Positions 31,733-37,791 of a stretch of DNA of 64,000 nt are shown piece after piece; the stretch's first letter is position 1; each line of letters opens with the position of its first letter. A model generated the notes under the pieces. The model was given only the letters and a program-made list of their open reading frames with translations, did no database searches and had not been told where the DNA came from. The DNA comes from Xanthomonas bonasiae (lineage in GTDB: Bacteria > Pseudomonadota > Gammaproteobacteria > Xanthomonadales > Xanthomonadaceae). The DNA lies in contig NZ_JAFIWB010000010.1 of NCBI RefSeq assembly GCF_017163705.1, positions 62,001-126,000 on the forward strand, read 5' to 3'. Made by a program: the position numbers and the translations under genes.

Positions 31733-32470
31733 TTACGCCGGTGCGACCGCCTCCAGCAGTTCGTCGCGCAACCACTGCTCCAGCACCTGCCCGATCAGCG
31801 CCGGATCATCGCCAGGCGCGTGCCGGCACAACACTCCGAACGGAACCCCGGCGAGCGCATCGCGCAGCATGCGCGCCTCCAGCGGCGACATGCTCTGGAA
31901 ATAGGGCGACAAGCCCTTGCGCCAGACCCGGATCACCATCGTCTCTGGCAGGCGTACCGCAGCTGGCGGTGGGGTCCCTTCGGACAGCGCCCGCCAGATC
32001 ATAGCGGCATTGCTGCGCATGCCGCGCCGGCGCAAGGTGGGCACGAAGCGCAGGCGCGCCTGCTCCCAGTCCACGCCGGCCAGTGACGCCAGCGTCACCG
32101 GCGCCGCGTCGGTCCCATCGAAGGCGCGGCGCAGGGCCAGGTCGAGCCAGGCCAGGTCCTCGATCTCCGGGCGCTCGGGATGGCACACGGCCAGGTGCGC
32201 GCCGAACCGATCGCCGTAGGCGCCAAGCGACCAGGCCGACGGCGGATGGCTCGCCACATAGCAGGCAGCGGCGGCATCGAACGCGGCCTCGCCCAACCAG
32301 GCCAAGGTCTTAGCGTAGGTATCGCGCAACGCATCGCCCAGCTGCGCACTGTAGGCGTGCCGGTACACGCGCAGGCCCGGACGCTGACGCGCGTCCAGCC
32401 AGGCATCTGCGTCGGCCGCGGGGTCACGCAGCCAACCCGAGAAGCGACGCTGCAGTTCCAGCAGGCTCAT
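31733..32470 (-). CDS. DUF2063-family partner protein of the MNIO enzyme (BufC-like), first operon
   Basis: A 245-residue protein of the DUF2063 (HvfC/BufC) family. The N-terminal domain has LRVYRHAYSAQLGDALRDTYAKTLAWLG, typical of the group. The middle carries LAWLDLALRRAFDG, and the C-terminus has a winged-like fold with VWRKGLSPYFQSMSPLEARML. Relatives bind the DUF692 enzyme and help present the precursor peptide. The start overlaps the end of the upstream DUF692 gene by four bases (ATGA), so the two are made together. It is last gene of the short operon bufA-bufB-bufC (33645 to 31733). Confidence 0.85.
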   Translation of the reverse strand: MSLLELQRRFSGWLRDPAADADAWLDARQRPGLRVYRHAYSAQLGDALRDTYAKTLAWLGEAAFDAAAACYVASHPPSAWSLGAYGDRFGAHLAVCHPERPEIEDLAWLDLALRRAFDGTDAAPVTLASLAGVDWEQARLRFVPTLRRRGMRSNAAMIWRALSEGTPPPAAVRLPETMVIRVWRKGLSPYFQSMSPLEARMLRDALAGVPFGVLCRHAPGDDPALIGQVLEQWLRDELLEAVAPA

Positions 32471-33303
32471 GCGGCCGCGCGTACCGCGCTGGAGGCGATG
32501 TCGCGGGCGATCTGAAGTTCGTCCAGCAATTCGGCCAACGGCGGTATCCGGTCGTCGCGCTCGATCATGGTGGCCACCGCACCGATGCGCTGGCATACCC
32601 TGGCGTAGAGCGCCCAGACCGGATCGCATATCGGCTGGTCGTGGGTATCGATCAGCAACTCGCGGCCCTGGCTGTGGCCGGCCAGGTGCACCTGGCGCAC
32701 GCGGTCCCAGGGCAGCGCATCCAGATAGGCCTGCGGGTCGGCACCGTGATTGCTGGCGCTGACGTAGACGTTGTTGACGTCGAGCAGCAGATAGCAGCCT
32801 GTCCGCGCGCATATCTCACGCAAGAAGTCCGCTTCGCTCATGCTGGCGCCCGAGAAGGCCAGGTAAGTGGAAGGATTCTCGAGCAGCAGCGGCCGTTCCA
32901 GCACGTCCTGGGCGTGGGCGATGTTGGCGCAGACGACGTCCAGCGCTTCGCCGTCGTAGGGCAGCGGCAGCAGATCGTGCGCGTTGAACCCGCCGACCGC
33001 GCTCCAACTGAGGTGATCGGAAACCCACAACGGACGCACGCGCCGCGCGAGGCGCTTGAGCCGCAGCAGATAGTCGCGATCGAGCCCATCGGCCGAGCCC
33101 AGCGACATGGACACGCCGTGCAGCGCCACCGGGTAGCGCTCGCGCACGCGGTCCAGCACGTGCAGCGGCCGGCCGCCGGCGACCATGAAGTTCTCCGAGA
33201 TCGCCTCGACGAAATCCAGCGCGGGCGGTTCCTCGAGATAGAGCGGATAGTGCGGCGGGCGCAGGCCCAGCCCGAAGCCGTGGAAAGGGGCGATCGTGTC
33301 CAT
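32467..33303 (-). CDS. DUF692 multinuclear iron oxygenase (MNIO, BufB-like), first operon
   Basis: A 278-residue TIM-barrel enzyme of the DUF692/MNIO family. In related systems MNIOs oxidise cysteines of a partner peptide to thiooxazole-like heterocycles that bind copper. Metal-ligand motifs are visible: VALHGVSMSLG, VSDHLSW, LLENPSTYL (Glu), LLDVNNVYVSASNHG (Asp, Asn, His), VRQVHLAGHS and IDTHDQPI. An ATG at 33303 is used; a TTG nine bases upstream is possible. It is preceded by the DUF2282 peptide gene and overlaps the DUF2063 gene. The substrate is most likely that peptide. Confidence 0.9.
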   Translation of the reverse strand: MDTIAPFHGFGLGLRPPHYPLYLEEPPALDFVEAISENFMVAGGRPLHVLDRVRERYPVALHGVSMSLGSADGLDRDYLLRLKRLARRVRPLWVSDHLSWSAVGGFNAHDLLPLPYDGEALDVVCANIAHAQDVLERPLLLENPSTYLAFSGASMSEADFLREICARTGCYLLLDVNNVYVSASNHGADPQAYLDALPWDRVRQVHLAGHSQGRELLIDTHDQPICDPVWALYARVCQRIGAVATMIERDDRIPPLAELLDELQIARDIASSAVRAAA

Positions 33304-33369
33304 CTGGCGCAAGGTCTCGTGCGTCGTCCCGGCCGGGCGCGCGGCGCCGGCCGGAACAGGGGCGTCGCC

Positions 33370-33645
33370 TCAGGCGGCGGGTGCGGTCAGCGAGCCGCCG
33401 GCCGACGTGCACTGCTTCACCGTCACATCCTTGAAGCCCTGGCCCTTGCACGCGTTCTGGCCCTTGCACTCGTGGCTGCCGGATTTGCAATCGGACTGGC
33501 CCTTGCAGCTGTTGATGCCATAGCAGGCGACGAGCTTGGCATCGCCCTTGGCGGCGGCGCTGGCGGTAGCGGGGACGCTGGCGGCGGCGACGGCGAGCAG
33601 GGCGGCGGTGGCGGCGAAACCGGTGACGGTACGGGTAGCGATCAT
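33370..33645 (-). CDS. DUF2282 cysteine-rich bufferin-type peptide, first operon
   Basis: A 91-residue secreted peptide. The Sec signal covers residues 1-30 (ends ATASA). The mature part holds six cysteines in CYGINSCKGQSDCKSG, ECKGQNACKGQG and KQC, with the repeated CKG motif of DUF2282. In Caulobacter, DUF2282 peptides (bufferins) are modified by a DUF692 enzyme and then protect against copper in the periplasm. It has its own promoter with GTAACC/CGAA just upstream. This copy has six Cys against four in the second peptide of the locus, so the two may differ in metal capacity. Confidence 0.9.
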   Translation of the reverse strand: MIATRTVTGFAATAALLAVAAASVPATASAAAKGDAKLVACYGINSCKGQSDCKSGSHECKGQNACKGQGFKDVTVKQCTSAGGSLTAPAA

Positions 33646-33690
33646 GGACGTTCCTCGGGGATGGACAGATGCCGAATTGGCAGCGGGTAC

Positions 33691-33716
33691 TTCGCCGCAA
33701 GCGTCGCTGCGGTTAC
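33691..33716 (-). promoter_or_regulatory. ECF-sigma promoter of the first bufferin operon
   Basis: On the minus strand GTAACC (33716-33711) is followed, after exactly 16 bases, by CGAA (33694-33691). It lies about 46 bases before the DUF2282 start codon. The identical element and spacing occur at the two divergent promoters of the adjacent sigma-factor locus, so this operon is probably read by that sigma factor. Confidence 0.8.
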
Positions 33717-33731
33717 AGCGCGCTGCGCGTG

Positions 33732-34190
33732 TCAGGCGATGCGCAACACACGGTCCAGCGATAGCGTGCCGGCGCCGCGCACCAGCAGATACGACAACAG
33801 CGCGGCCCAGCTCAGGTGCGTGGGCCAGGCATCGGGATAGACGAAGATCTCGATCACCGCGGTCATGCCCAGCAATGCCAGCGCCGACAGGCGCGTGCAC
33901 AGGCCCAGTATCAGCAGCAACGGGAACAGATGCTCCGCATAGGTGGCCAGGTGCGCGGCCAGTTCCGGCGGAAGCAGCGGCACGCGGTAGTCCTCGCGAA
34001 ACAGTGCGTAGGTGCTGTCGGTGATGGTCAGCACGCCGCTGACCTTGGTACGTCCGGACAGGAAGAAGATCGCGGCGATCGACAGCCGGAACAGCAGGGC
34101 CAGCGCGGAGTGGCCGACCCGCTGCGACAGCGCGGCGGCGAGACGATTCCACGCTGTGCGCGGGTCCGAAGAAGCGAGAGGGGGCGTCAT
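33732..34190 (-). CDS. DoxX-family membrane protein
   Basis: A 152-residue protein with four membrane helices, of the DoxX family ([22 protein letters not shown] near residue 35, [23 protein letters not shown] near residue 90). DoxX proteins are common last members of DUF2282-DUF692-DUF2063 operons, including the gold/copper-induced gig operon of Cupriavidus. Their proposed role is redox support for the enzyme or envelope. The start overlaps the upstream DUF2063 stop (ATGA). This gene ends just before the promoter of the first bufferin operon. Confidence 0.9.
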
Positions 34191-34948
34191 GGAATTCCTT
34201 GCGTGGAAGAAAGGTCGAGGGAAGAAAACGCGCCGGCGCGCAGCAGCGTGGCGAACGTGTCCGCCAAGGCCAGCGCCGGCTCGGCCTGCTGCGCCCGCGC
34301 TGCGGCGGCCTGCAGCGTGACGCCGCCGCGGCAGGCCTCCAGCAGCGCGCAACCGCCCAGGCCCAGCGCCTGCCGATGCACCTGGCCGCCGTGCCGCAGC
34401 AGCAGCGCGCCTTCGCCGCGCCACGCAAGTTCGGGCACCGGCGCCGCATCGCGCTGCGCGCACCAGATCGCGTACACCGGCAGCGCCTCGAACCAATGCC
34501 AGCGCGCGCTCGGATGCACGGCCACGCGCGCGCCGGCCAGTTGTTCGCGCGGCAAGGCGGCCACGGCCTGCGGATCGAGTACCGCGGCATCGGCCGCGAC
34601 ATGCGCCTCGCGCCAGCTGCGATCCAGTTGCGCCACGCCCGGCAGGTAGGGCAGTTGCCGGGCCTCGGGAAGCGCGGCGAGAAACGCATCGAAGTCGTCG
34701 CCGTAGTTCAAAAGGCGCACATCGTCGGGTGGGCAGCGGCGGGCATAGGCACGCGCCGCCTCCTCGAACCATGCCGCGCCCACCAGCCGCTGCACGCTCG
34801 GAAAATTCGCCTGCAGCGCGTCGATGCAGGCACGCAGCACGGTGTTGCGATAGATGCGGAATCCCGGTTGCGCCGCCAGGCCGCCGGCGTCGCCATCGCC
34901 GTACAGCGCGCGCGCGAAGCCGTCCTGGAACTGCGCCAACGCATTCAT
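34187..34948 (-). CDS. DUF2063-family partner protein (BufC-like), second operon
   Basis: A 253-residue DUF2063 protein, paralogue of the one at 31733. It starts [19 protein letters not shown] and shows [21 protein letters not shown] and [22 protein letters not shown]. Sequence identity with its paralogue looks low, so the two operons are old, not a recent duplication. The start overlaps the DUF692 stop and its own stop overlaps the DoxX start (both ATGA), giving a tightly coupled unit. It presumably helps the DUF692 enzyme recognise the four-cysteine peptide. Confidence 0.85.
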
Positions 34949-35787
34949 GCCGCCCACCGCCGACGCGTCGCGGCCCGCTCCAGCAGCCGTTGCGCGCGAT
35001 CGCGCTCCAGCAGCAGCGCATCGAACGCGGGCACGTCGCCATCGCGCTCGATCAACGTCGGCCGCGGCCCGGCGAGGTCCAGGAAATGCGCGTACAGGTC
35101 CCAGACCGCGTCGTCCACCGGCGCATCGTGCGAATCGATCAGCAGGGTCCGCTCGTCCGCCGCATCCTCGGCATGGCCGGCCACATGCACTTCCACCACC
35201 GCATCGGCGGGGAAGGCGTGCAGGTAGGCGTAGGCGTCGAAACCGAGGTTGTGCGCGCTGACATGGACATTGTTGATGTCCAGCAATAGCCGGCAGCCGC
35301 TGCGGCGTACCAGTTCGGCCAGGAACTCCGGTTCGCTCCACGCGTGCCCGGGCAGCGCCAGGTAATGGCTCGGGTTCTCGATCGCCAGGGGGCGGCCGAG
35401 CGCCTCCTGCGCCTGCTGGACATTGCTCACCACGCGCGCCAGCGCCGCGGCGCTGCGCGGTACCGGCAACAGGTCCGGATGGTAGCGGCCGCGCCAGACC
35501 GACCAGGCCAGGTGCTCGGACACCTGCCACGGCCGGACCCGCTCGGCGAGCGCGGCCAGACGGCGCAGGTGCCGCGCGTCCGGGTCGGCATCGGCCGCCA
35601 GCGACAGCGATACGCCGTGCAGCGACAGCGGGTGGCGCGCGGCGATCGCCTCGAGCCAGGCGAGCCGCGGCCCGCCCTGGACCAGATAGTTCTCCGGGTG
35701 CACCTCGAACCACAGCCCTGGCGCAGTGCAATCCAGCGCCTGCGCGTAGTGCTGCGGCTTCAGGCCGATGCCGGCGCCGAGCTGCAT
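34945..35787 (-). CDS. DUF692 multinuclear iron oxygenase (MNIO, BufB-like), second operon
   Basis: A 280-residue MNIO, paralogue of the enzyme at 32467. Ligand motifs are conserved: [84 protein letters not shown]. The NNVHVSAHN loop differs from NNVYVSASN in the other copy, a possible specificity change. It lies 16 bases after the DUF2282 gene and overlaps the DUF2063 gene. Predicted to modify cysteines of the neighbouring peptide. Confidence 0.9.
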
Positions 35788-35803
35788 GGCCGCGGCGCCG
35801 CGC

Positions 35804-36091
35804 TCAGGCGCCGACCGGGGTCAGCGTGCCATGGCCCTTCGGCGTCTTGATGCCGACGCAGGTGCCGGCCGGCACATTCTTCCAGGCGTTGCCTTGGTAG
35901 TCGCGCTTCGACGTGCCCGCGCAACTGGTCCCCGCGCCGGCCTTGCAATCGTTCTGGCCGGCCTTGGCGATGCCGTAGCACTTCTCCATCGGCTTGGGCT
36001 GGGCAGCGGGATCGGCGCCCTGAGCCATCGCGGCTCCGGCGACGAGAGCGGCCAGGGTCAGGGCCGCCGTTGCAGCGTTGCGTACGTTCAT
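35804..36091 (-). CDS. DUF2282 bufferin-type peptide, second operon
   Basis: A 95-residue secreted peptide with a signal sequence over residues 1-24 (ends AAMAQG). The mature part has four cysteines: [21 protein letters not shown] and [14 protein letters not shown]. This matches the four-Cys pattern of typical DUF2282 bufferins. It is first gene of the operon DUF2282-DUF692-DUF2063-DoxX and has a GTAACC/CGAA promoter about 74 bases upstream, back to back with the sigma-factor operon. Copper or other thiophilic metal buffering in the periplasm is inferred from the family. Confidence 0.9.
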
Positions 36092-36164
36092 GAGAATGCT
36101 CCTGCGGAAAAGGGAAGGGACGGACCGGGCCGCGAGTGCACGCGGCGGCCGGAACCCTTCTGCA

Positions 36165-36190
36165 TTCGCGGCGAACGCCGCCGCGGTTAC
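36165..36190 (-). promoter_or_regulatory. ECF-sigma promoter of the second bufferin operon
   Basis: On the minus strand GTAACC (36190-36185), a 16-base spacer, then CGAA (36168-36165). It lies 74 bases before the DUF2282 start. Same elements and spacing as the promoters at 33691 and 36237. Confidence 0.82.
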
Positions 36191-36236
36191 AGCCGGTCGC
36201 CGATGCGGGCGAAAAAGAATGAAGGCGGCGTCGGCT

Positions 36237-36262
36237 GTAACCGCCGCCGCGGATGCGGCGAA
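36237..36262 (+). promoter_or_regulatory. Autoregulatory ECF-sigma promoter of the sigma/anti-sigma operon
   Basis: GTAACC (36237-36242), a 16-base spacer, then CGAA (36259-36262), facing right. It lies 46 bases from the divergent promoter of the bufferin operon. The sigma-factor ORF starts 328 bases downstream, so the mRNA would carry a long leader. The 498-base gap 36092-36589 holds these promoters and short frames but no other supported gene. Confidence 0.78.
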
Positions 36263-36530
36263 CTACCGCTGACATGACCATAGACGGGGAAGCAACCGTG
36301 AACAGCCAGATGCCGGTGGCGGCCGTGGACGGACGGGCTGCGCCTGCAGCGCGATCCGTCGCGGCGGCGGGCGCGTGCGTTGCCCGCCTTGCACGACCGG
36401 CTGCGGCGCCTGGCGCTGCCTGGCGGCGGCAGCGATGACGGGCGGGCACGGGGGGCCGGTCCTGCGGCCAGGACAGCGCCGTCGTATCCTGCCTGTCCGG
36501 CGTCCGCCAGGCCGCCCTGGAGAACGCCGC

Positions 36531-36593
36531 ATGTCCGTCCTCCGCCGTTCCCGCCGCGCCCCTCGCCCGGCCGCCGGCCGCGTGGCGCAATGA
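36531..36593 (+). CDS. Possible 20-residue upstream ORF coupled to the sigma-factor gene
   Basis: ATG at 36531 has GGAGA six bases before it and encodes the Arg-rich peptide MSVLRRSRRAPRPAAGRVAQ. Its stop TGA overlaps the start ATG of the sigma gene (ATGA), which itself has no clear ribosome-binding site. Translation of this frame could feed ribosomes into the sigma gene. It is short and of biased composition, so it could be chance. Confidence 0.35.
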   Translation: MSVLRRSRRAPRPAAGRVAQ

Positions 36594-37153
36594 GCCGCCT
36601 GGACGCGCTGCAGGCGGTGGAGGTGCGTCTGCGCCTGTTGTTCGTGGCCGGCCTGGATGGCAACGCGCGCGACTACCGCGCCTTCCTCGACGAACTCAGC
36701 GCCCACTTGCGCGGCTTCCTGCGCCGACGCCTGACCCACGCGCCCGATGACGTGGAGGACATCTTGCAAGAGACCCTGCTGGCCATCCACAACAGCCGCC
36801 ACACCTACCGCCGCAGCGAACCGTTGACCGCGTGGGTATATGCGGTCGCCCGGTACAAGCTGCTGGACTTCTACCGGGCGCACGCGCGCAAGCGTCCGCT
36901 GCAGCTGCCGCTGGATGACGCCGACGACCTGTTCGCGCATGCGGACGACGCTCCGGCGCACGCACGCCATGAGATCGGCCGGCTGCTGGAACAATTGCCG
37001 GACCGGCACCGCCTGCCGATCGTGCACGTGAAGCTGCAAGGCCTGTCGGTCAGCGAGACCGCCAGGCTGACCGGCATGTCCGAATCGGCGGTCAAGATCG
37101 GCGTGCATCGCGGACTCAAGGCGCTGGCGCTGAAGATCAGGAGTACGACATGA
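36590..37153 (+). CDS. ECF sigma factor of the SigF (NrsF-controlled) type
   Basis: A 187-residue extracytoplasmic-function sigma factor. Region 2 shows FLDELSAHLRGFLRRRLTH, DDVEDILQETLLAIHNSRHTY and PLTAWVYAVARYKLLDFYR (-10 recognition). Region 4 shows RLLEQLPDRHRLPIVHVKLQGLSVSETARLTGMSESAVKIGVHRGL (-35 helix-turn-helix, residues 130-175). It overlaps the anti-sigma gene by four bases. In Caulobacter SigF and its membrane anti-sigma NrsF respond to heavy metals and control bufferin operons; the same layout occurs here. The start is chosen at MSRLDALQ; longer frames are Pro/Arg-rich and non-homologous-looking. Confidence 0.92.
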   Translation: MSRLDALQAVEVRLRLLFVAGLDGNARDYRAFLDELSAHLRGFLRRRLTHAPDDVEDILQETLLAIHNSRHTYRRSEPLTAWVYAVARYKLLDFYRAHARKRPLQLPLDDADDLFAHADDAPAHARHEIGRLLEQLPDRHRLPIVHVKLQGLSVSETARLTGMSESAVKIGVHRGLKALALKIRSTT

Positions 37154-37791
37154 AGACCGATGAGCTGATCGCGCTGCTGGCGCAGGAACCGCTGCGCGTG
37201 GACCGGCATGTCTCCGCCCGGCGGTTCGCACTGGCACTGCCGTGCGGGATGCTGGGGGCGCTGCTGCTGGCGGCGGCGGTGTTCGGTGTCCGCCCGGACC
37301 TGGCCGCGGCGGCCGCCGATCCGGCGTTCTGGGCGAAGCTGGGCTTCGCCGCCTGCATGGCCGCCGGCGCCGGCCTGGCGACCTGGCGCCTGGCCACGCC
37401 GGGGCGGCGGGTCGGCGCAGCCGCCATCGCGATCGGCGTCCCGGTCGCAGCGGTGTGGATCGCCGCCATCGCCGTGCTGTGGACGGCACCGGCGGACCTG
37501 CGCCTGCCGTTGCTGCAGGGCCAGAGTTGGCACAGTTGTCCGTTCAACATCGCGCTGCTGTCGATTCCGACCTTCGCCAGCGTGTTCTGGGCCTTGCGCG
37601 GACTGGCACCGACCCGCCTGCGCGCGGCCGGCGCCGCTGGCGGGCTGCTCGGCGGCGCGCTGGCGACCATGGCCTATTGCCTCCATTGCCCGGAGATGGC
37701 GGTCCCGTTCTGGGCACTCTGGTACGCGCTGGGGATGGCGCTGCCGACCGCGCTCGGCGCCGCGCTCGGCCCGCGCCTGCTGCGCTGGTAG
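37150..37791 (+). CDS. NrsF-type membrane anti-sigma factor (DUF1109)
   Basis: A 213-residue protein with a cytoplasmic N-terminus (MKTDELIALLAQEPLRVDR, the sigma-binding part) and six membrane helices, of the DUF1109/NrsF family. Cysteines in loops, WHSCPFNIALLS near residue 127 and MAYCLHCPEMAVPF near residue 178, correspond to the conserved cysteines needed for metal sensing in Caulobacter NrsF. Metal binding to them is thought to release the sigma factor. The start codon overlaps the sigma stop (ATGA). This makes the locus a complete metal-sensing switch. Confidence 0.9.
   Translation: MKTDELIALLAQEPLRVDRHVSARRFALALPCGMLGALLLAAAVFGVRPDLAAAAADPAFWAKLGFAACMAAGAGLATWRLATPGRRVGAAAIAIGVPVAAVWIAAIAVLWTAPADLRLPLLQGQSWHSCPFNIALLSIPTFASVFWALRGLAPTRLRAAGAAGGLLGGALATMAYCLHCPEMAVPFWALWYALGMALPTALGAALGPRLLRW

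What the first reader, a model, noticed from the sequence alone, without database searches (positions are those of the whole stretch)
31733..37791. Self-contained bufferin regulon with two peptide-maturation operons and its own sigma/anti-sigma switch
Seen: two DUF2282-DUF692-DUF2063 gene sets (one with DoxX) and an ECF sigma/DUF1109 pair, all within 6 kb. Known: in Caulobacter DUF692 enzymes modify cysteines of DUF2282 peptides for copper protection, and SigF-NrsF controls them. Inference: here the entire sensing, regulation and response pathway is clustered, with two divergent peptides (six and four cysteines) and two divergent enzymes, suggesting different metals or loads.
Basis: partly seen in the sequence, partly recalled or inferred. 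Interest (0 to 1): 0.8.

Follow-up and report, generated by a model that had tools for sequence, protein, structure and literature searches.

The report
Self-contained copper-buffer peptide regulon
A 6-kb stretch of a bacterial genome carries two different, probably copper-binding, peptide systems together with the stress switch that appears to turn both on, a compact one-place version of a defence that was described as scattered in another bacterium.

Summary
Nine intact genes fill 31733-37791: bufA1-bufB1-bufC1-doxX and bufA2-bufB2-bufC2 on the minus strand, sigF-nrsF divergent. One correction: only the four-Cys peptide is DUF2282 (Buf1); the six-Cys one is the separate Buf2 family.

The published sigma-F promoter tGTAACc-N16-CGAA stands exactly once upstream of each transcription unit, 0 in 100 shuffles. 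These are the only exact GTAACC-N16-CGAA sites in the 5.38-Mb genome. The layout recurs in 22 distinct loci, with the motif at bufA1 and bufA2 in 22 of 22. In an order-wide Buf2 set it precedes bufA2 in 19 of 19 loci near sigF and 0 of 41 without.

So this is one NrsF-gated regulon of two bufferin operons, all-or-none at its site: 5 of 19 genus genomes have it, 14 do not. A periplasmic copper buffer is inferred from Caulobacter. 'Different metals' is unsupported; a thiol-oxidant or hypochlorite signal remains a live rival. New variant of a known kind: Caulobacter has a similar regulon, dispersed.

The parts
31733..32470 (-). bufC2, DUF2063 + RRE-fold partner protein (245 aa)
   Evidence: Pfam DUF2063 62.8 bits; AlphaFold model matches 8hi7_A, the 269-residue chain of TglHI (E 2.6e-5), and NGO1945 3dee (E 1.9e-4)
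32467..33303 (-). bufB2, MNIO (DUF692) bufferin maturase
   Evidence: NCBIfam MNIO_BufB 381.3 bits, cut-off 310
33370..33645 (-). bufA2, Buf2 bufferin precursor, six Cys, apparent signal peptide (by eye)
   Evidence: NCBIfam BufA2 99.6 bits, cut-off 60; six Cys invariant in 11 aligned sequences
33691..33717 (-). sigma-F promoter of bufA2B2C2, TGTAACC-N16-CGAA, 45 nt before the start codon
   Evidence: exact motif in 22 of 22 composite loci; alignment of five genus members
33732..34190 (-). doxX, membrane protein, last gene of the Buf1 operon
   Evidence: Pfam DoxX 66.6 bits; HvfX family below cut-off, 49.7 of 80 bits
34187..34948 (-). bufC1, DUF2063 partner protein (253 aa)
   Evidence: Pfam DUF2063 74.8 bits; overlaps bufB1 and doxX by 4 nt each
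34945..35787 (-). bufB1, MNIO (DUF692) bufferin maturase
   Evidence: NCBIfam MNIO_BufB 355.4 bits, cut-off 310
35804..36091 (-). bufA1, Buf1 (DUF2282) bufferin precursor, four Cys, apparent signal peptide (by eye)
   Evidence: Pfam DUF2282 87.3 bits; four Cys invariant in 11 aligned sequences
36165..36191 (-). sigma-F promoter of bufA1B1C1-doxX, 73 nt before the start codon
36236..36262 (+). sigma-F promoter of sigF-nrsF (autoregulation), back-to-back with the bufA1 promoter
36590..37153 (+). sigF, ECF sigma factor (ECF16/SigF type by partner and promoter)
   Evidence: Pfam Sigma70_r2 and r4_2; NCBIfam PRK12536 296.6 bits, cut-off 250
37150..37791 (+). nrsF, anti-sigma factor with Cys130 and Cys180
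   Evidence: Pfam NrsF 229.6 bits; Cys130 in 125 and Cys180 in 128 of 131 NrsF sequences

Best explanation
A single ECF16-type sigma-F/NrsF switch controls two bufferin operons beside it. NrsF, an inner-membrane anti-sigma factor, holds SigF until its paired cysteines (130 and 180) meet excess copper or another thiol-reactive stress. Freed SigF transcribes three units from tGTAACc-N16-CGAA promoters: its own operon, bufA1B1C1-doxX and bufA2B2C2. The MNIO enzymes, guided by their DUF2063-RRE partners, convert cysteines of Buf1 (four Cys) and Buf2 (six Cys) to thiooxazoles in the cytoplasm. The peptides are then exported by Sec and bind copper in the periplasm. Shown here: the genes, the promoter sites, their genome-wide uniqueness as exact sites, their conservation, purifying selection and the partner fold of BufC2. 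Inferred from Caulobacter and related work: copper as signal, the cysteine chemistry, export and the buffering function.
For: Three exact promoters in the window, 0 in 100 shuffles. They are the only exact GTAACC-N16-CGAA sites in 5,383,649 bp; the reversed pattern gives 8. The motif is published for Caulobacter sigma-F as GTAACC-N16-CGAA (PMC3511200, figure legend seen) and for ECF group 16 as tGTAACc-N16-CGAA (PMC3420878, passage). Order-wide Buf2 set: exact motif before bufA2 in 19 of 19 loci with sigF within 6 kb and 0 of 41 without; before bufA1 in 18 of 19 and 0 of 11; spacings 13-15 and 17-19 gave one match in that set. 22 distinct composite loci: motif at bufA1 22 of 22, bufA2 22 of 22, within 450 bp of sigF 19 of 22, the other three having an extra nrsF between promoter and sigF. 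NrsF Cys130 and Cys180 conserved, matching Caulobacter C131/C181 (PMC3511200 abstract). The corresponding Caulobacter operons are copper-induced and a sigF::Tn5 mutant is copper-sensitive (PMC8224329 passages).
Against: No expression, binding or metal data for this organism. In the 20 regions mostly of more distant family members the exact motif is often missing: bufA1 3 of 6 near sigF, bufA2 0 of 3, sigF 3 of 17; in two Dyella loci with bufA2 further than 6 kb from sigF it is missing too, 0 of 2. The 327-nt leader between promoter and sigF start is long and unexplained. Caulobacter sigF is not strongly autoregulated under chromium or cadmium, and its loss did not raise sensitivity to those metals (PMC3511200 Discussion). 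SigF/NrsF systems elsewhere answer hypochlorite or peroxide. The Caulobacter regulon also holds an Msr unit, but no exact promoter exists outside the cluster here.
Confidence: 0.8

Rival explanations
1. The switch senses oxidants (hypochlorite, peroxide, chromate) through NrsF cysteines, and the Cys-rich peptides serve oxidant stress at least as much as copper.
For: SigF/NrsF systems in Brucella (HOCl), perchlorate reducers (hypochlorite) and Bradyrhizobium (H2O2) drive Met-rich peptides or Msr systems (PMC8315932, PMC4623255, PMC3420878, passages). Of the 35 named NrsF loci without buf genes nearby, 17 hold an MXKDX-like Met-rich repeat somewhere in the locus.
Against: No Msr or MXKDX gene lies in this cluster and no other exact promoter exists; the MXKDX family search of this genome was negative, but its controls did not ring either, so it shows nothing. 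In Caulobacter the bufferin-type operons respond to copper, and sigma-F genes were not induced by ROS generators.
Confidence: 0.25
2. The two peptide-enzyme sets are specialised for different metals or different loads.
For: The two enzymes are 48% identical and fall in separate clades; the peptides are of different families. Work on a related enzyme argues for family-specific substrate choice (PMC12668002 section).
Against: Identical promoters imply one trigger. [quoted passage not shown] Four relatives keep both peptides with no BufB1-clade enzyme.
Confidence: 0.12
3. Only the Buf1 operon is a true sigma-F target; bufA2B2C2 is a separate cassette that merely sits beside it.
For: The landscape paper reports sigma/NrsF genes in Buf1 but not Buf2 clusters (PMC12452194). 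41 of 60 bufA2 genes in the order-wide set have no sigF within 6 kb and no motif.
Against: An exact sigma-F promoter lies upstream of bufA2 here and in 22 of 22 composite loci, and in 0 of 41 Buf2 loci lacking sigF.
Confidence: 0.05

Closest known systems
Caulobacter SigF-NrsF regulon (CC3254-3257, CC2907-2905, CC2748)
   Same: Same sigma/anti-sigma pair, same promoter, two paralogous peptide-DUF692-DUF2063 operons, DoxX in one (PMC3511200, PMC8224329).
   Different: There the second operon and the Msr unit lie at other loci; here both operons and the switch sit within 6 kb, and no site outside has the exact promoter. That CC2907-2905 is the Buf2 set is my inference: PMC3511200 lists CC2907 as DUF2282, while PMC12452194 speaks of a Buf2 in C. 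vibrioides.
Bufferin gene clusters, Buf1 and Buf2 (MNIO RiPPs, captophorins)
   Same: Precursor with signal peptide, BufB, BufC, often DoxX (PMC12452194 sections, PMC12668002 abstract and one section).
   Different: That survey states sigma/NrsF genes occur in Buf1 but not Buf2 clusters; here one switch serves both.
gig operons (gold-induced genes)
   Same: Said to be bufferin clusters in PMC12452194.
   Different: Named from gold induction; gold was not testable here.
SigF/NrsF-MrpX-YedYZ hypochlorite system; Brucella bcrS-abcS-bcrXQP
   Same: Same ECF16/NrsF switch type.

Membership tests
ECF16 sigma factor with NrsF anti-sigma | Target promoter tGTAACc-N16-CGAA | tested here: met
   three exact sites, one per transcription unit; motif from PMC3511200 and PMC3420878
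ECF16 sigma factor with NrsF anti-sigma | NrsF/DUF1109 membrane protein with two conserved Cys near 130 and 180 | tested here: met
   Pfam NrsF 229.6 bits; C130 in 125 and C180 in 128 of 131 sequences, some loci being near-duplicates
ECF16 sigma factor with NrsF anti-sigma | Sigma factor itself assigned to ECF16 by a classification model | not tested
   no ECF classification model was run
ECF16 sigma factor with NrsF anti-sigma | NrsF binds SigF and lets go on stress | not testable with these tools
   needs two-hybrid or fractionation
NCBIfam AntiSigF_NrsF equivalog | score of 300 bits or more | tested here: not met
   140.5 bits; filed as an NrsF-family protein by Pfam, not as this equivalog
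Buf1 bufferin | DUF2282, four Cys, signal peptide, next to MNIO and DUF2063 genes | tested here: met
   the signal peptide was judged by eye, no predictor was run
Buf2 bufferin | BufA2 profile above cut-off, six Cys | tested here: met
   99.6 bits, cut-off 60; six Cys invariant
BufB MNIO maturase | MNIO_BufB equivalog above cut-off | tested here: met
   381.3 and 355.4 bits, cut-off 310
PME-type 1 partner (DUF2063 + RRE) | DUF2063 domain plus RRE-type fold, about 250 aa | tested here: met
   245 and 253 aa, DUF2063; BufC2 model matches the 269-residue TglHI chain and 3dee; BufC1 was not modelled
Bufferin / captophorin | Cys-derived thiooxazoles that bind copper | not testable with these tools
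   needs mass spectrometry and metal titration

The most novel reading that the evidence does not exclude
Buf1 and Buf2 are two halves of one portable copper buffer under one switch, gained and lost as a single 6-kb unit, and BufB2 is a general maturase able to modify both peptides, with BufB1 dispensable. Related genomes that kept both peptides but no BufB1-clade enzyme would be natural experiments for this.
Probability: 0.3. Interest if true: 0.55.

Novelty: new variant of a known kind. Interest (0 to 1): 0.42.

Why it matters
It gives a minimal bufferin regulon (switch, two peptides, two enzyme pairs, every exact sigma-F promoter in the genome) as one 6-kb segment with natural presence and absence at one chromosomal site. 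That lets one ask directly why bacteria keep two bufferin families, whether one maturase can serve both, and what NrsF senses, in a system without the scattered targets of Caulobacter.

Tried and rejected
One search covered the family with a wrong spacer (N13-14 between longer half-sites), so its 0 of 198 means nothing; it was replaced by local scans. One search gave 0 of 8 other same-genus genomes with NrsF, which suggested absence from the genus; the fuller draw showed 5 of 19. Horizontal gain was considered because the best 80 of 282 NrsF relatives in the named collection are mostly Burkholderiales and Pseudomonas, but records near the window's own genome may be left out there. Within the genus, island and flank divergence broadly agree, so one gain with later losses fits better than repeated gains, though the flank tree has weak nodes (supports down to 0.07). 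Loss of bufB1 in L204 and L210 was first read as support for BufB2 cross-use; both genomes have another MNIO beside a second Buf1, so that reading rests on G421, G433, G437 and G148 only. Sequence search of BufC against PDB was inconclusive (3dee, E 0.062) and was settled by structure. The paper search for 'bufferin' as a word start matched 'buffering' and was repeated as a whole word with copper. The search pairing bufferin with Luteibacter listed 11 papers that look unrelated by title. The MXKDX family search of the own genome was negative but its controls did not ring. The organism could not be named; that it is a Xanthomonas-type member of its order is my inference from recall, no call names it.
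Full report
Anatomy. The interval holds seven minus-strand genes and two plus-strand genes. In transcription order the minus strand reads bufA1 (35804-36091), bufB1 (34945-35787), bufC1 (34187-34948), doxX (33732-34190), bufA2 (33370-33645), bufB2 (32467-33303), bufC2 (31733-32470). Divergent from bufA1 are sigF (36590-37153) and nrsF (37150-37791). Pfam and NCBIfam name most parts. bufA1 is DUF2282, the Buf1 family. bufA2 has no Pfam hit and is BufA2, the Buf2 family, so 'two DUF2282 sets' must be corrected. bufC1 overlaps bufB1 and doxX by 4 nt each, as in an operon.

Promoters. The published sigma-F site is GTAACC-N16-CGAA (PMC3511200, figure legend seen), given for ECF group 16 as tGTAACc-N16-CGAA (PMC3420878, passage seen). 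The pattern TGTAACC-N14..18-CGAA has three matches in the 64-kb window and none in 100 shuffles; all three have spacing 16. They lie 73 nt before bufA1, 45 nt before bufA2 and 327 nt before sigF. In the whole genome (5,383,649 bp) GTAACC-N16-CGAA occurs exactly three times, all here, while the reversed pattern occurs eight times; TGTAACC with spacing 15 occurs twice elsewhere. The genome has one match each for NrsF, DUF2282 and BufA2. The regulon is self-contained at the level of exact sites; sites with mismatches were not counted.

Conservation. I fetched 59 Buf2 regions chosen from the match list (not all rows; one of them, G324, just below the cut-off) and the G018 region, which was chosen for its NrsF. 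In these 60 loci the exact motif lies within 350 bp upstream of bufA2 in 19 of 19 with sigF within 6 kb (18 of 18 without G018) and in 0 of 41 without, and upstream of bufA1 in 18 of 19 and 0 of 11. Spacings 13-15 and 17-19 gave one match in this set and one more in the family set. In the 80 named NrsF loci it precedes bufA1 in 42 of 46, sigF in 62 of 80, bufA2 in 1 of 1 near sigF and 0 of 2 further away. In the 20 regions it is rarer: bufA1 3 of 6 near sigF and 0 of 1 away, bufA2 0 of 3, sigF 3 of 17. In the genus set it precedes bufA1 5 of 5, bufA2 5 of 5 and sigF 1 of 5 within 350 bp; the long leader puts the sigF site just outside, and 5 of 5 have it within 450 bp. Composite loci with bufA1 and bufA2 both behind one divergent sigF number 23 rows. 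L113 and L209 are the same contig (both 337,834 bp; Luteibacter sp. dw_328), so 22 are distinct: 20 have the full gene order and 2 (L204, L210) lack bufB1. The motif precedes bufA1 in 22 of 22, bufA2 in 22 of 22 and sigF within 450 bp in 19 of 22. In the other three (L201, L213, L217) an extra nrsF lies between promoter and sigF.

Genus distribution. All 20 held genomes of the genus match the left flanking gene, 19 of them strongly. In these 19, regions of about 14 kb (12 kb for the window) show the flanks in synteny: 5 carry the whole island and 14 carry none of its genes at this site; of the 14, 12 have a gap of 197-460 bp and 2 a gap of 1.6-1.7 kb. Whole-genome absence of NrsF and BufA2 was shown for 7 of those 14; the other 7 were not searched whole. 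G186, with only a weak flank match, was left out of the 19; it too lacks NrsF and BufA2. Island identity among the five is 84-91% and flank identity 92-97.5%. L183 is nearest the window and L189 farthest by both measures, while L185 and L188 change places. This fits common descent within one subclade with later losses, without proving it. All nine genes are free of stops against the four congeners, with pairwise dN/dS of 0.02-0.31.

Proteins. NrsF Cys130 and Cys180 are kept in 125 and 128 of 131 sequences. Buf1 keeps four Cys and Buf2 six in all 11 sequences of each alignment and in 22 of 22 composite loci. Both BufB proteins align with solved MNIO structures, best 3bww, then TglH and MbnB. 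The best BufC2 model (mean pLDDT 83.2; the other four 58-71) matches the 269-residue chain of TglHI and 3dee, as expected of a DUF2063-RRE partner; that this chain is TglI follows from its length, TglH being 304 residues.

One enzyme for two peptides? In a tree of 77 BufB sequences the 20 composite BufB1 share an ancestor that holds 25 sequences, the other five being Buf1-operon enzymes of other genera (support 1.0). The 22 composite BufB2 share one that holds 24 (support 0.84). In 13 loci bufA1 and bufA2 stand with only a BufB2-type enzyme beside them; one of these, L259, is in a genome that also has BufB1. Whole-genome MNIO searches of four others (G421, G433, G437, G148) found no BufB1-clade enzyme, and G421 has a single MNIO. 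Either BufB2 matures both peptides or Buf1 stays unmodified there. PMC12452194 already raises the possibility that one enzyme pair serves several precursors (Discussion), and a comparable Pseudomonas cluster, 'Pep4', is listed in PMC8719888 (passages). For the related enzyme FonB, PMC12668002 argues for family-specific substrate choice (one section), so this is an open test.

Function. In Caulobacter both peptide-DUF692-DUF2063 operons, sigF-nrsF and an Msr unit are among the 11 genes... reported as copper-induced in all conditions, and a sigF::Tn5 mutant is copper-sensitive (PMC8224329 passages). Buf1 there carries Cys-derived thiooxazoles that chelate copper; Buf2 is reported to be similar in preliminary work (PMC12452194 Discussion). 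I transfer this to the window by homology; nothing here measures it. Against a pure copper reading, related switches respond to hypochlorite or peroxide, and in Caulobacter loss of sigF did not raise sensitivity to chromium or cadmium, so the signal is inferred.

Novelty. The parts and the regulatory logic are known. The landscape paper states that sigma and NrsF genes occur in Buf1 but not Buf2 clusters (section read). The joined Buf1-Buf2 unit with one sigma-F promoter per operon was not found described in the sections and passages I saw; searches were in an open-access library that lacks most subscription journals, and the original bufferin paper was not seen. I rate it a new variant of a known kind.

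Noticed in passing
L048, L050, L057, L077, L097 and other NrsF loci without buf genes: Exact sigma-F promoters there often precede a Met-rich MXKDX peptide (17 of 35 such loci hold an MXKDX-like repeat somewhere; one example confirmed as TIGR02953) or, by eye, a cytochrome-b-like membrane protein. This fits the published MrpX/Msr hypochlorite system and suggests the same switch is wired to Cys peptides in some lineages and Met peptides in others.
   Followed up: partly
L278:8600-11400 (own genome, contig C5): A third MNIO with a partner gene and a precursor ending in EGKCGEGKCGGGG (oxazolin/captophorin type by its motif), without the exact sigma-F motif.
   Followed up: partly
L279 (own genome, contig C30): A fourth, distant MNIO (134 bits), function not examined.
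   Followed up: no
L201:12123-14012, L213:12182-14074, L217:4809-6657: Two nrsF genes flank one sigF, so the anti-sigma factor is duplicated in three composite loci.
   Followed up: no
L204:7920-8935 and L210:10271-11275: bufB1 is cleanly missing between bufA1 and bufC1 while all three promoters remain; both genomes have another MNIO beside a second Buf1.
   Followed up: partly
L231:9343-9762 (G040): bufA2 carries two tandem Buf2 domains near sigF, with an exact sigma-F promoter upstream.
   Followed up: no
window 36263-36589: 327-nt leader between the sigF promoter and its start codon, also long in the four congeners and not obviously coding; possible post-transcriptional control.
   Followed up: no
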